64,000 nucleotides of DNA from Arenibacter latericius DSM 15913 (lineage in GTDB: Bacteria; Bacteroidota; Bacteroidia; Flavobacteriales; Flavobacteriaceae). The number at the start of each line of letters is the position of its first letter. The first letter of the stretch is position 1. The notes below the pieces were generated by a model, which was given only the letters and a program-made list of their open reading frames with translations, ran no database searches and was not told where the DNA came from. The translations under genes and the position numbers were made by a program. The DNA lies in NCBI RefSeq assembly GCF_000424985.1, contig NZ_AUKX01000003.1:62001-126000 (forward strand), read 5' to 3'. Of the stretch, positions 40,500-45,138 are shown piece after piece.

Positions 40500-40507
40500 T
40501 ATTTTTG
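40500..40507 (+). promoter_or_regulatory. Candidate -7 box just before the HYC_CC_PP gene
   Basis: TATTTTTG fits TAnnTTTG and ends only 8 nt before the ATG. If used, the mRNA would be almost leaderless. No -33 TTG sits at 19-21 nt (TTTG at 40466-40469 is 30 nt away), so this is tentative. Confidence 0.35.
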
Positions 40508-40515
40508 TACCATTC

Positions 40516-40932
40516 ATGAAGAATATTTTTCAAAATATAGCATCTTTAACCCTAGCGCTTTTAGTGCTTTTCTCTACCATGTCTTTTACATTGGATATGC
40601 ATTATTGTGGGAAAACACTAATAGATTATTCCGTCTTTAACAAGGTAGATACCTGTGGGATGGAGACAATGCAGCCAACTGAAAATGACAGTTGTTCTAT
40701 AGTGGTAGACAATTGCTGTAATGAAGAGAATATTACCATAGAAGGACAAGATATCCTTAAAAATTCATTTGATAAGTTTTCGTTTCATCAACTAGTGTTT
40801 GTGGCTACTTATGCCTACAGCCTAAACTATTTGTATGAAGGGGAAATTGAGAATATTGTTCCGTTTGTGGACTATTCTCCTCCTTTTCTCATACGGGACA
40901 TCCATGTTTTGTATGAAACTTTCCTAATTTGA
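40516..40932 (+). CDS. HYC_CC_PP family protein (heavy-metal-associated, exported)
   Basis: The 138-residue protein has an N-terminal hydrophobic export segment (residues 6-25) and the three marks of this flavobacterial family: HYC at 29-31 (DMHYCG), CC at 67-68 (DNCCNE) and PP at 122-123 (DYSPPFL). Five cysteines in the first 70 residues suggest disulfides or metal binding in the periplasm. The family's function is not known in detail; members are often found near metal transporters. Here it precedes a DUF3347 lipoprotein, an HMA-AraC regulator and a CopA ATPase, which supports a role in copper or heavy-metal handling. Confidence 0.82.
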   Translation: MKNIFQNIASLTLALLVLFSTMSFTLDMHYCGKTLIDYSVFNKVDTCGMETMQPTENDSCSIVVDNCCNEENITIEGQDILKNSFDKFSFHQLVFVATYAYSLNYLYEGEIENIVPFVDYSPPFLIRDIHVLYETFLI

Positions 40933-41218
40933 TTTTTTCACTTAGAAAATAAAGTCCTACCAGGTTAACGGTATTTGGACCAACTATGCCGTTCGTTCAA
41001 TTAGAAGAATCTAATGGGCGGTAAATCCATATTTTTATTGCTATTGGTGGCCAAACCCTTAGTGTGCGGCACTATTTTATGGGGCAATAAAAGTCATTGA
41101 GCTTTATAAAAAGCAGAAGTTTAGGAGTTTAAATTTATACCATAAATAAAACCGTAGGAAGTAAGCGGATAATTTACTTTAATATTATTATCAATAATTA
41201 CTTATAAATTAAATTAAA

Positions 41219-41788
41219 ATGAAAGTAGCAAAATTTAAAATCGGAGTTTTAGCATTAGCAGTTTTTAGCTTAGGAATGATGTCTTGTAAAGATGCCAAAA
41301 AAGAATCCGCTAAAGAAGAGGTGAGTGGAGTTTCCCAAGAAATATCTACCGGACAGGATTCTAATGGAGTGGAAATAATTATCGATAATTACATGGAGCT
41401 CAAAGACGCTTTGGTAGGTGACAATCAGGAATTGGCAGCTAAAGCAGGTGATAAATTGGCAAGTACTTTATCAAATTTTGATATAAAAACCTTAGAGGTG
41501 TCTAATGATTCCGAGGTGAAGTCAATTTTAGCTGCTGCCAAAGAAAGTGCAGATCAGATAGGCAAGAGTAAAATCACCCAACAAAGAGAACACTTCGAAG
41601 GCTTAAGTGATAACCTAGTTAGTTTAGTAGCGATTACCGGAGCTCCTATGCCATTGTACCAGCAGTTTTGTCCTATGTATAAGGATGATAAAGGTGGTAT
41701 GTGGGTGAGTACAGTAAAGGCAGTAAAGAACCCATACTTTGGTAGTCAGATGTTGAACTGTGGTTTTGTTCAAAAGGAATTAAACTAA
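41219..41788 (+). CDS. DUF3347-domain lipoprotein (copper/heavy-metal associated)
   Basis: The 189-residue protein has a lipobox in GMMSC (C23) and a helical DUF3347 domain ending with a conserved cysteine/methionine region: QFCPMYKDDKGGMW and NPYFGSQMLNCG (about residues 150-182). The same wording occurs in CusB-like efflux adaptors of Bacteroidota, where the Cys and Met residues are thought to bind Cu(I). Here the domain stands alone as an outer- or inner-membrane-anchored periplasmic protein. It lies between the HYC_CC_PP gene and the metal regulator/ATPase genes on the same strand. Confidence 0.85.
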   Translation: MKVAKFKIGVLALAVFSLGMMSCKDAKKESAKEEVSGVSQEISTGQDSNGVEIIIDNYMELKDALVGDNQELAAKAGDKLASTLSNFDIKTLEVSNDSEVKSILAAAKESADQIGKSKITQQREHFEGLSDNLVSLVAITGAPMPLYQQFCPMYKDDKGGMWVSTVKAVKNPYFGSQMLNCGFVQKELN

Positions 41789-41798
41789 TCAGAGATAA

Positions 41799-41806
41799 TA
41801 ACTTTG
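41799..41806 (+). promoter_or_regulatory. Candidate -7 box before the HMA-AraC gene
   Basis: TAACTTTG matches TAnnTTTG, 67 nt before the regulator start. No -33 TTG at normal spacing. Confidence 0.3.
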
Positions 41807-41873
41807 GACAGGGACGATAGGATTTGTGTAATATTCTTATCTTCAAGGAAGTTTGGCTATTTTATAAGGAAGC

Positions 41874-42440
41874 ATGAAGAAAAAAATCCTCGTTAAAAAT
41901 ATGGTTTGCAATAGGTGTATAACCCTTTTGGAACAAGAGTTCAAAAAGGTTGGCATTGTTGTGGAATCTATTGTCTTGGGCGAGATCGTTTATGTGGAAA
42001 AAGAAGGAGTAGATCAGTATTTTTTTGAAAATATGCTTCGGGAAAACGGTTTTGAACTGGTAAAAGATGCTGGGGAAATGCTTACTGAACATATAAAGAT
42101 AGCACTGATTGAAGCCGTAGACCAAATTGAAGCTTCTTCGGAAGAAAACCTATCGTCCTACTTGTCCAAAAAACTGAATAGGGATTATTCAGTAATGAGC
42201 AAAATGTTCAGTAAACAAGAGGGAGTAACTATTGAGCGGTATTATATCCATCTAAAAATAGAAAAGGTTAAGGAATTGATCCAACTACAACATCTTAATT
42301 TTTCTGAAATAGCCTATAGCCTTAACTACAAAAGCAGTAGCCATTTGGCATCACAGTTTAAAACAATAACTGGAATGTCTATGAGCGATTATAAGAATTT
42401 ACAGCAGTGGGGAAGGAAGCCACTAGACCAAATAGTATAA
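41874..42440 (+). CDS. AraC-type HTH regulator with N-terminal HMA-like metal-binding module
   Basis: The 188-residue protein joins two parts. Residues 1-70 look like a heavy-metal-associated fold with the CxxC site in KNMVCNRCI (C12, C15) and a beta strand ILGEIV-type segment. Residues about 95-180 are an AraC/XylS double helix-turn-helix: SSYLSKKLNRDYSVMSKMFSK, then FSEIAYSLNYKSSSHLASQFK and GMSMSDYK. This makes it a likely one-component Cu(I) or soft-metal sensor. It sits directly upstream of copA (74 nt) and probably controls it. The CxxC spacing, not a cysteine-rich MerR or CsoR fold, is the point of interest. Metal and DNA binding are inferred. Confidence 0.82.
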   Translation: MKKKILVKNMVCNRCITLLEQEFKKVGIVVESIVLGEIVYVEKEGVDQYFFENMLRENGFELVKDAGEMLTEHIKIALIEAVDQIEASSEENLSSYLSKKLNRDYSVMSKMFSKQEGVTIERYYIHLKIEKVKELIQLQHLNFSEIAYSLNYKSSSHLASQFKTITGMSMSDYKNLQQWGRKPLDQIV

Positions 42441-42466
42441 ACATCCTCCATAATTGTGAAAATGAA

Positions 42467-42490
42467 ATCCCTAGGGATAGGCTAATTTTA
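42467..42490 (+). promoter_or_regulatory. Candidate operator and promoter of copA
   Basis: ATCCCTAGGGAT (42467-42478) is a perfect 12-bp palindrome 36 nt before the copA start. It is followed by TAATTTTA (42483-42490), one mismatch from the -7 box; a TTG lies at 42454-42456, 26 nt upstream of it. A palindrome inside a long spacer suggests a regulator-dependent promoter. Confidence 0.45.
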
Positions 42491-42514
42491 GGTAAATATT
42501 TAAAGACGTAAACA

Positions 42515-45016
42515 ATGACACATACCTATAAAATTTTTGGGATGACCTGTAATGGTTGCAGGAGCCATGTAGAAGAAACTCTAAAAAAGGTAGAGGGTGT
42601 TTCCAATGCTTCTGTAGACTTGGCAAAAGCGGAGGCTACAATAGAAATGAAGGAGCATATTGCGATAGATACTTTTAAAAAAGCCTTGGAGCAAGATGGT
42701 GGGAGTTATACTATTGCCATGCCTGGGGAAGAAGAACCAGAACACTTTAAAGCTCCTAAAAAAGCTCCTCAAGGATCGGGAACAGGGACGTTTTACTGTC
42801 CTATGCATTGCGAGGGAGATAAGACTTATGACAAACCAGGAGATTGCCCAGTTTGTGGAATGGACTTGGTAGAAGAAGTGAAAATGGATGCCTTTGGCGC
42901 TACCCAATACACCTGTCCAATGCATCCAGAGATAATAAAGGATGAACCTGGGGATTGTCCTATTTGCGGAATGGATCTAGTACCTGTAAAAGCTGATATC
43001 TCTGCCGAAGAAAAGAATTATAAGAAGCTATTGAAAAAGTTTTGGATAGCAGGGATCTTTACCCTGCCAATTTTTATAATTGCCATGTCCGAAATGATTC
43101 CTAATAATCCATTGTATGACCTGCTTCCAATGAAATATTGGAACTGGATACAATTTGCACTTTCTATTCCCGTAGTATTCTACGCTACATGGATGTTTTT
43201 TGAACGTGCCTATCGTTCCATAAAAACCTGGAACCTAAATATGTTTACCCTCATCGGTATCGGTGCAGGTGTTGCGTGGTTGTTCAGTGTTTTTGGATTG
43301 CTATTTCCAGATTTTTTCCCAGAACAGTTTAAGACGCATCACGGAACTGTGCATGTGTATTTTGAAGCGGCTACCGTTATCCTAACCTTAGTATTAATGG
43401 GGCAACTGTTAGAGGCCCGTGCCCATAGTAAAACTAATAACGCCGTAAAGGAATTATTGAAGTTGGCACCCAATAAAGCTGTCAGAATAGTTAATGGGAA
43501 GGAAGAAACTATTGCTATCGATAAAATAAAAATAGGCGACTTGCTTAGGGTTAAGCCAGGAGAAAAAATTCCAGTAGACGGAAAAATCCGTGAAGGAAAT
43601 ACTTCCATAGACGAATCTATGATTACTGGGGAGCCTATACCAGTGGATAAGGAAGAGGGCGATTCCGTTAATTCGGGTACCATTAATGGGAAACAAACCT
43701 TTGTTATGGAAGCCCAAAAAGTAGGGTCAGATACCTTATTGGCTCAAATAATAGACATGGTAAATAAAGCTAGTAGGAGTCAGGCTCCCATACAAAAACT
43801 AGCCGATAAGATATCTGCCTATTTTGTGCCAGTGGTGGTATTAATTTCGGTCATTACCTTTATTGTATGGGCTGTTGTGGGGCCAGAACCCGCCTATGTG
43901 TACGCTTTGGTAAATGCCATTGCAGTGCTGATTATCGCCTGTCCCTGTGCCCTTGGTTTGGCTACCCCTATGTCTGTTATGGTAGGTGTTGGTAAAGGGG
44001 CGCAATCTGGAGTGCTTATCAAAAATGCAGAAGCATTAGAGCGGATGGATAAAATAGATACGCTTATTATTGATAAGACAGGAACTATTACGGAGGGGAA
44101 ACCATCCGTGGAAAGTATTAATAGTGTTTCTCCCGATTATAGTGAAGAGGAAATTCTCCAATTTATCTACTCTCTTAATAATCTTAGTGAGCATCCTTTG
44201 GCGGAAGCTACGGTGAATTTTGCAAAAGAAAAGAAGGTTTCTCTTTTAACCGCTACCAATTTTATGTCTGTAACCGGTAAGGGAGTTACAGGAACGGTAG
44301 ACGGTAAGAAAGTGGCTTTGGGAAATAAAAAAATGATGGAAGAAGCCCAGGTTAAACTGTCTGATAAATTACAGAATGAGGTTCTAGAAGAGCAGAAAAT
44401 GGGCAAGACAGTACCTTTATTAGCAGTTGATAATGTAGGTATTGGCTATGTGGTGATTAGTGATATGATAAAGAAAAATAGTAAGGCTGCTATTACGGAA
44501 TTGCAAAAGAGTGGTATAGAGGTAATTATGCTAACCGGAGATAACCACGATACTGCAAAGGCCGTTGCAGAAACATTGGGTCTAGCTAATTTTAAAGCCG
44601 AAATGTTACCTCAAGATAAATTAAATGTGGTAGAGCAGTTGCAGAAAGAAGGTAAAAAGGTGGCCATGGCCGGAGACGGTATTAACGACGCTCCAGCTTT
44701 AGCAAAGTCCGATGTAGGTATTGCTATGGGTACCGGTACCGATGTTGCCATAGAAAGCGCGGGTATTACTTTGGTAAAAGGTGATTTACAAGGCATAGTA
44801 AAAGCGAGGCACCTTAGTGAAAAAGTGATGGGGAACATAAAACAGAATTTATTCTTCGCCCTTATTTATAATACACTTGGTGTGCCTATTGCGGCAGGAG
44901 TGCTCTTCCCTGTGTTTGGATTACTGTTGTCTCCTATGATTGCTGCTTTAGCTATGAGCTTCAGCTCGGTATCAGTAATCGCGAATGCGTTGAGGTTGCG
45001 AGCCACAAAAATATAA
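42515..45016 (+). CDS. copA: Copper-translocating P1B-type ATPase
   Basis: This exporter of Cu(I) from the cytoplasm has 833 residues: an HMA domain with GMTCNGC (9-15), two HMBD modules with CPMH...CPVCGMDL (93-120) and CPMH...CPICGMDL (132-157), eight TM segments, the membrane metal site CPC (C476-P477-C478), phosphorylation motif DKTGT (D520), TGDN and the hinge [14 protein letters not shown] modules are typical for Bacteroidota and some marine bacteria. The CPC motif points to Cu(I)/Ag(I). The gene follows the HMA-AraC regulator and is closed by a strong terminator. Confidence 0.95.
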
Positions 45017-45097: not shown

Positions 45098-45138
45098 AAA
45101 ACGAGTTTTGATCGTAAAAAATCAAAGCTCGTTTTTTT
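45098..45138 (+). terminator. Terminator downstream of copA
   Basis: AAAACGAG-T-TTTGAT (45098-45112) pairs with ATCAAA-G-CTCGTTTT (45121-45135), giving a 14-pair stem with one mismatch, followed by a T-run. It ends the copper locus 80 nt after copA. Confidence 0.88.

What the first reader, a model, noticed from the sequence alone, without database searches (positions are those of the whole stretch)
40516..45016. Compact copper locus with an HMA-AraC fusion regulator
Seen: four same-strand genes, HYC_CC_PP protein, DUF3347 lipoprotein, an AraC-type HTH protein whose N-terminus holds a CxxC HMA-like site (C12, C15), and a CopA ATPase with HMA plus two HMBD modules, closed by one strong terminator. 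Family knowledge: CPC-type P1B ATPases export Cu(I), and DUF3347 cysteines are associated with Cu efflux adaptors. Inference: the regulator senses Cu(I) through its HMA module and turns on copA, a different solution from CueR, CsoR or CopY.
Basis: partly seen in the sequence, partly recalled or inferred. Interest (0 to 1): 0.62.

Follow-up and report, generated by a model that had tools for sequence, protein, structure and literature searches.

The report
Fused copper sensor switching on copA
A bacterial gene switch that joins a copper-carrier-like fold to an AraC-type DNA reader sits directly in front of the copper pump gene it most likely turns on, and relatives of it are spread through its phylum, although nothing we could search describes it.

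Summary
Observation confirmed: HYC_CC_PP, DUF3347 lipoprotein, a 188-aa HMA-like/AraC protein and CopA, then a terminator-like hairpin. Residues 1-64 of the regulator are predicted as a CopZ/ATP7B-type HMA fold, 65-180 as an AraC DNA-binding domain. The family, paralogs included, is found in 142 of 296 sampled genomes of the phylum. Copper genes lie near 53 of 63 members with both cysteines, but near 1 of 30 without.

New here: the regulator-copA spacer holds a conserved site, CCATAATTnTgnAA, 21 nt before a TAnnTTTG box, with a second copy exactly 21 bp upstream: the layout expected of an AraC-type activator dimer. In the window the distal copy lies in the regulator's own last codons. The full pattern occurs once without mismatch in the 4.48-Mb genome.

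Best explanation: Cu(I) binds C12/C15 and the protein activates copA. Metal binding, DNA binding and activation are inferred, not measured. Against it: the motif model misses 51 of 71 loci outside its training set, many from a branch with a different sequence at the same place. New variant of a known kind.

The parts
40500..40507 (+). TAnnTTTG promoter-like box (TATTTTTG) before the HYC gene
   Evidence: Read directly; the box is kept in the five HYC upstreams aligned. That TAnnTTTG is the Bacteroidota -7 consensus is recalled, from no call.
40516..40932 (+). HYC_CC_PP family protein, 138 aa
   Evidence: NF047658 E 9.8e-32
41219..41788 (+). DUF3347 lipoprotein, 189 aa; homologous to the C-terminal part of the Bacteroidota CusB adaptor
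   Evidence: PF11827 E 5e-22; 34% identity with residues 446-575 of a same-genus CusB, E 1e-17; another CusB carries HlyD + DUF3347 + HMBD. Lipoprotein nature is read from the N-terminus, not tested.
41874..42440 (+). HMA-like/AraC regulator, 188 aa; C12 and C15; HMA-like residues 1-64, AraC DNA-binding domain 65-180
42427..42440 (+). candidate distal operator half-site ACCAAATAGTATAA, inside the last codons of the regulator gene (DQIV-stop)
   Evidence: 21-bp period in 56 non-redundant sites; coordinates checked
42448..42461 (+). candidate proximal operator half-site CCATAATTGTGAAA
   Evidence: motif found in 47 non-redundant spacers, log-likelihood 193.2 against 46.9 +- 4.4 in 12 shuffled sets; full pattern with the -7 box has one zero-mismatch place in the genome
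42483..42490 (+). candidate copA -7 box TAATTTTA (5 of the 6 fixed letters of TAnnTTTG; its nearest relative L126 has TAATTTTG)
42515..45016 (+). CopA, Cu(I) P1B-type ATPase, 833 aa, N-terminal HMA plus two HMBD modules
45098..45135 (+). terminator-like hairpin after copA

Best explanation
The 188-aa protein is a one-component cytoplasmic copper regulator. Its N-terminal Atx1/CopZ-like HMA domain binds Cu(I) through C12 and C15 when cytosolic copper rises. Its C-terminal AraC domain then, as a pair of molecules, occupies two direct half-sites 21 bp apart (42427-42440 and 42448-42461) just upstream of the copA -7 box (42483-42490) and recruits RNA polymerase, so that copA is switched on and Cu(I) is pumped out. 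Shown by computation: domain make-up, HMA-type fold, family-wide cysteine pair, copper neighbourhood, conserved site with fixed spacing to the -7 box and 21-bp repeat. Inferred: Cu(I) as ligand, that this protein is what binds the site, activation rather than repression, and dimer binding.
For: (1) HMA-like fold and copper-type HMA relatives. (2) V11, C12, R14, C15 invariant in 100 aligned members and in the 23, which were not fetched by a motif. (3) Copper genes within 7 kb of 53 of 63 members with both cysteines and 1 of 30 without. (4) Of the first 109 family rows, 62 have a CopA within 5 kb, all 62 on the same strand, 58 with CopA downstream. (5) Spacer motif. (6) A -7-like box at exactly the same offset after the stop codon in 59 of 107 non-redundant CxxC members; mean 1.01 at other offsets, next highest 11; 1 of 22 non-redundant members without CxxC. 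(7) Second half-site at a shift of 21 bp: mean score 2.27 against -12.9 to -26.2 at the other shifts from 15 to 32, in 56 non-redundant sites. (8) Where the next gene is a multicopper oxidase, CopZ or permease instead of copA, a site that was not in the training set still precedes it in several loci, e.g. L038, L061, L073, L086, L088, L101, L106, L139, L161, L169. (9) Of 21 loci fetched later, 13 have the site against 1.3% of shuffles; two are training places, leaving 11 of 19.
Against: No experiment. The window protein itself scores no PF00403 match, and only 37 of 100 members do at E <= 1. Foldseek's best HMA row is a zinc ATPase domain (2ldi, E 0.045), so the fold does not fix the metal. 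The motif model, trained on copA spacers, finds a site in only 20 of 71 CxxC loci outside the training list; many misses belong to a second branch that has a different sequence (such as CGAAAGTTATGCAG) at the same offset with the -7-like box, others have nothing recognisable; two plasmid loci next to multicopper oxidases have none. Ten CxxC members have no recognised copper gene near. 77 of the 100 sequences of A3 came, whose search patterns included KNMVC[ND]R, so the invariance there is partly by selection. No site was found before the regulator's own gene.
Confidence: 0.75

Rival explanations
1. Same architecture, but the protein represses copA and copper relieves it.
For: The proximal half-site ends 21 nt before the -7 box, where a bound protein could also block polymerase.
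Against: Direct repeats 21 bp apart ending next to the -33/-35 region are the classical activator layout of AraC proteins (recalled, from no call), and no good -33 TTG stands at the usual distance from the -7 box in the window (read).
Confidence: 0.1
2. The HMA-like module senses another soft or thiophilic metal (Ag, Au, Zn, Cd, Hg), or oxidation of the two thiols, rather than Cu(I).
For: CxxC HMA folds bind several metals; Foldseek's best HMA row is a zinc ATPase domain; ten CxxC members lie away from recognised copper genes.
Against: In the profile search most HMA matches are copper proteins and the zinc one comes only at E 0.39; neighbours are CopA, Cus, multicopper oxidase and CopZ-like genes.
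Confidence: 0.12
3. The conserved spacer site is a target of another regulator, or an RNA element, and the HMA-AraC protein acts elsewhere.
For: The motif was found by conservation only; some family members have no recognisable site next to them.
Against: The site follows the regulator gene even when the next gene is not copA; of 30 paralogs without CxxC only one has it, and that one (L168) sits beside copA; the 21-bp direct repeat suits an AraC protein.
Confidence: 0.1

Closest known systems
CueR (MerR family) copA activator
   Same: One-component cytoplasmic Cu(I) regulator next to copA (role inferred here)
   Different: MerR-type DNA-binding domain; the window protein shows only AraC-type HTH and an HMA-like domain
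CsoR (DUF156/PF02583) and CopY repressors
   Same: Copper-responsive control of copA
   Different: Different folds and repressors; PF02583 occurs in 85 of 296 sampled genomes and overlaps the HMA-AraC family in only 9. CopY was not searched.
AraC/XylS one-component activators (AraC, MarA, SoxS)
   Same: C-terminal double-HTH domain (Z about 14 to 6swi and MarA); candidate sites are direct repeats 21 bp apart, as at araI1-I2 (recalled)
   Different: N-terminus is HMA-like, not the AraC sugar-binding cupin; no cupin family among the Pfam matches
Atx1/CopZ metallochaperones and ATP7B/CopA HMA domains
   Same: Fold over residues 1-64, rmsd 1.5-1.9, and MxCxxC loop
   Different: Fused to a DNA-binding domain; loop is NMVCxRC instead of GMxCxxC; below the Pfam cut-off
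Bizionia argentinensis copper homeostasis (PMC11213822, section 12 and search passages read)
   Same: Same species as locus L092, where a family member lies between CusC and a multicopper oxidase
   Different: The paper found MerR and CopY-like proteins without copper sites and two ArsR candidates; the word AraC does not occur in its main text

Membership tests
AraC/XylS regulators | C-terminal double-HTH domain (HTH_18/HTH_AraC) | tested here: met
   HTH_18 47.4 bits over cut-off 33.6, HTH_AraC 30.8 over 26.6; Z 14.5 to 6swi
AraC/XylS regulators | binds direct repeats upstream of the target promoter | not testable with these tools
   A conserved direct repeat of 21-bp period is there, binding is not shown
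HMA domain (PF00403) | scores over the curated cut-off | tested here: not met
   No match at E <= 1 for the window protein; 37 of 100 relatives match at E <= 1, best 9.5e-4. So: HMA-like by profile and fold, not filed as PF00403
HMA fold | ferredoxin-like Atx1/CopZ fold with an MxCxxC loop | tested here: met
   VIA-align Z 8.3-9.3, rmsd 1.5-1.9, 59-64 residues against CsoZ, CopZ, ATP7B, Atx1 and other rows; M10-V-C-N-R-C15
CueR/MerR | MerR-type N-terminal HTH | tested here: not met
   No MerR model among Pfam or NCBIfam matches at E <= 1
CsoR (PF02583) | match to Trns_repr_metal | tested here: not met
   No PF02583 match for the protein and none in its genome
CopA, copper P1B ATPase | TIGR01511 over cut-off, CPC motif | tested here: met
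   588.6 bits, cut-off 397; CPC read
Cu(I)-responsive transcription factor | Cu(I) binding that changes transcription | not testable with these tools
   Needs experiment

The most novel reading that the evidence does not exclude
A phylum-wide class of copper sensors, made by joining an Atx1/CopZ-like carrier domain to an AraC DNA-binding domain, is the main cytoplasmic copper switch of much of Bacteroidota in place of CueR and CsoR. It acts through tandem 21-bp sites whose distal half is often written into the regulator's own last codons, may be loaded by ligand exchange with CopZ or CopA domains of the same fold, and has given rise to paralogs that lost the cysteines and serve non-copper loci.
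Probability: 0.55. Interest if true: 0.85.

Novelty: new variant of a known kind. Interest (0 to 1): 0.72.

Why it matters
How Bacteroidota sense cytoplasmic copper is an open point: a 2024 study of the Bacteroidota member Bizionia argentinensis found no MerR or CopY-like protein with a copper site and named only two ArsR candidates. This family offers a candidate with a named gene, a named metal site and a named DNA site, so the question can be tested directly with one protein, one DNA fragment and one mutant. If right, the textbook set of cytosolic copper sensors gains a further architecture in which a chaperone-type fold is itself the sensor.

Tried and rejected
Operator before the regulator's own gene: motif search in 32 non-redundant upstream regions gave log-likelihoods only modestly above shuffles, and the shuffles had fewer starting seeds, so it is not a fair test; a box conserved in six close relatives (TTTGGACA...) has one exact place and two places with three mismatches in the genome, the control has as many (3 and 3). 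Remnant of CusA/CusC in the 286-bp gap between HYC and DUF3347: no convincing trace. Common operator with the Cus cluster at G000:C1: none seen. Beyond the one perfect site, the genome-wide pattern counts (191 and 185 at up to three mismatches; 33 at two, none at one) hardly exceed the reversed-pattern control (155 and 167), so no wider regulon is claimed; the pattern came from a consensus that includes the window, so its perfect match there is not independent. HMA fold of the CxxC-less paralog: its model matches AraC domains, no HMA row is among the 50 shown; inconclusive. PMC10434189 was looked into by passages for AraC, copper and P-type ATPase; nothing on this family. Papers: ten searches in the open-access library listed no paper that describes an HMA-AraC copper regulator; listings only, apart from PMC11213822 (section 12 and passages) and PMC10434189 (passages); subscription papers and preprints are not held.

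Rows dropped before counts: L041 had no regulator ORF in my gene caller and was left out, so 79 of 80 loci were used. L199, counted as a member without cysteines and without copper genes, shows the NMVCNRC motif in another frame just upstream, so it looks like a frameshifted CxxC member; without it the count is 1 of 29. The Fisher values ignore kinship.
Full report
1. What is there. HYC_CC_PP (NF047658, 110.2 bits), DUF3347 (PF11827, 79 bits) and CopA (TIGR01511, 588.6 bits; HMA; two HMBD stretches) all pass their curated cut-offs. The third gene has an AraC-type HTH (HTH_18 47.4 bits) and C12/C15 in M-V-C-N-R-C; its N-terminus gives no Pfam HMA match alone. A terminator-like hairpin follows at 45098-45135.

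2. The N-terminus is HMA-like. A profile of 100 relatives finds ATP7B (E 8.3e-6 and 5.2e-5), Bacillus CopA (2.7e-4) and CopZ (0.002) over residues 2-5 to about 62-71, a zinc ATPase domain only at 0.39. The AlphaFold2 model has mean pLDDT 84.0 and pTM 0.64. Residues 1-64 align to CsoZ (Z 9.3, rmsd 1.8, 63 residues), CopZ 2qif (Z 9.1, 1.7), ATP7B and Atx1 rows; residues 65-180 align to AraC domains (6swi Z 14.5, MarA Z 14.0). Foldseek alone ranks HMA rows low, the first being a zinc ATPase domain at E 0.045. Among 100 members 37 match PF00403 at E <= 1, best 9.5e-4: a diverged HMA-like domain.

3. A family with a cysteine pair. V11, C12, R14, C15 are invariant in 100 aligned members; 77 of these were fetched with patterns that included the motif, but the 23 came from a whole-protein search and are invariant too. 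In 296 sampled genomes of the phylum 142 have a match at E <= 1e-25; that model also matches CxxC-less paralogs (6.9e-41 for the one in this genome), so 142 counts the family as a whole. Outside the phylum one full-length locus came from an Ignavibacteria MAG (L114); other phyla were not sampled. Full-length members also lie on plasmids, one of them typed conjugative.

4. Copper company. In an independent set of 93 members from relatives of the window's genome, found by whole-protein search, copper genes lie within 7 kb of 53 of 63 members with both cysteines and of 1 of 30 without (one of the 30 looks like a frameshifted CxxC member). The exception, L168, has YxxC and sits beside copA. The genome itself has one full-length CxxC member (the window's) and one paralog with KFDFNKTC instead, in a neighbourhood without recognised copper genes. 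On a quick tree the three cysteine states need four changes, so the pair was lost more than once or regained; the root is arbitrary.

5. The operator. The spacer between regulator and copA is 74 bp in the window. Spacers of relatives share CCATAATTnTgnAA followed by a -7-like TAnnTTTG. In 47 non-redundant spacers an expectation-maximisation search gives log-likelihood 193.2 against 46.9 +- 4.4 (maximum 57.5) in 12 shuffled sets. The distance from site to box is 21, in other lineages 22. Counted from the stop codon, a box matching at least 5 of 6 letters stands at exactly the same offset in 59 of 107 non-redundant CxxC members, against a mean of 1.01 at other offsets (next highest 11), and in 1 of 22 members without CxxC. 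Scoring 14-mers at shifts of 15 to 32 bp upstream of 56 non-redundant sites gives a mean of 2.27 at 21 bp and -12.9 to -26.2 elsewhere: a direct repeat of two helical turns. In 36 of these 56 the proximal site starts within 12 nt of the stop, so the distal half lies in the end of the regulator gene (window: DQIV-stop); in the other 20 it lies at or after the stop, and the repeat is still there (mean 1.81 at 21 bp, otherwise -9.0 or lower), so protein coding does not explain it.

6. Tests outside the training set. With a threshold at the 99% quantile of shuffles, the site was found in 20 of 71 CxxC loci not in the training list and in 1 of 30 without CxxC. Hits include loci whose next gene is a multicopper oxidase, a CopZ or a permease. 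Many misses come from a branch with HYC directly before the regulator and a different gene set after it; they carry another sequence, such as CGAAAGTTATGCAG, at the same offset with the -7-like box, which may mean a changed recognition sequence. Others have nothing recognisable. Of 21 loci fetched later 13 hit (shuffles 1.3%); two are training places, leaving 11 of 19; both plasmid loci miss.

7. One target. The pattern of site plus box has one zero-mismatch place in the genome, the window's, none with one mismatch and 33 with two. The Cus cluster (HYC, CusA 81% identical, CusC, CusB) is intact elsewhere in this genome without a regulator beside it, while in a same-genus genome HYC-CusA-CusC-DUF3347-regulator-CopA-CusB form one run (L129). 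The window locus is thus the compact half of a larger arrangement; which state is older was not tested.

8. Other solutions in the phylum. CueR (TIGR02044) passes its cut-off in 0 of 296, but full-length CueR-like proteins reach 137.6 bits against the cut-off 147.4, and in five genomes of one family without an HMA-AraC match (G062, G067, G108, G116, G212) one lies about 0.5 kb upstream of a CopA. So the phylum probably uses several solutions; the claim that the HMA-AraC protein is the main one is limited to much of it.

9. Mechanism and limits. Cu(I) on C12/C15, a change in the protein, pairing on the direct repeat and activation of copA are inferred. That TAnnTTTG is the Bacteroidota -7 box and that AraC half-sites stand 21 bp apart next to the -35 region are recalled, from no call. 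A 2024 study of Bizionia argentinensis searched for copper regulators and named only ArsR candidates for the cytoplasm (section 12 read); locus L092 of that species has a family member between CusC and a multicopper oxidase. Ten paper searches found no description of the family.

Noticed in passing
L141:7639-8199 (-), G000:C13:79659-80192: Paralog of the regulator with KFDFNKTC in place of KNMVCNRC; similar CxxC-less proteins occur across the genus, often without copper genes near (21 aligned). What they sense is unknown.
   Followed up: partly
L081, L096, L140, L219: Members of the HYC-regulator branch in different genera share exact 60-mers around the regulator's 3' end, which points to recent transfer of a copper cluster.
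   Followed up: no
L272 (plasmid NC_015704.1): A family member followed by a multicopper oxidase and RND genes on a plasmid typed conjugative, near IS630 transposases and an integrase.
   Followed up: no
G062, G067, G108, G116, G212: A CueR-like gene about 0.5 kb upstream of CopA in five genomes of one family that have no HMA-AraC match.
   Followed up: no
window 42417-42440: The regulator's C-terminal tail (RKPLDQIV) is predicted disordered (pLDDT below 50 for 181-188) yet R181 and D185 are conserved; part of it overlaps the distal half-site, but the tail is also kept in some members whose site lies further downstream (e.g. L036).
   Followed up: partly
G000:C58:896-961 (-): A short match to residues 3-24 of the family profile (E 6e-4) in an open frame of 69 aa; fragment or unrelated HMA protein, not examined.
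   Followed up: no
L188, L189, L190, L185, L187, L176: A CxxC branch (KNMVCHRC or KNMVCNRC) without recognised copper genes near; L189 and L176 show two CCCAAAA-type repeats directly after the stop codon. Possible sensors for another target.
   Followed up: no
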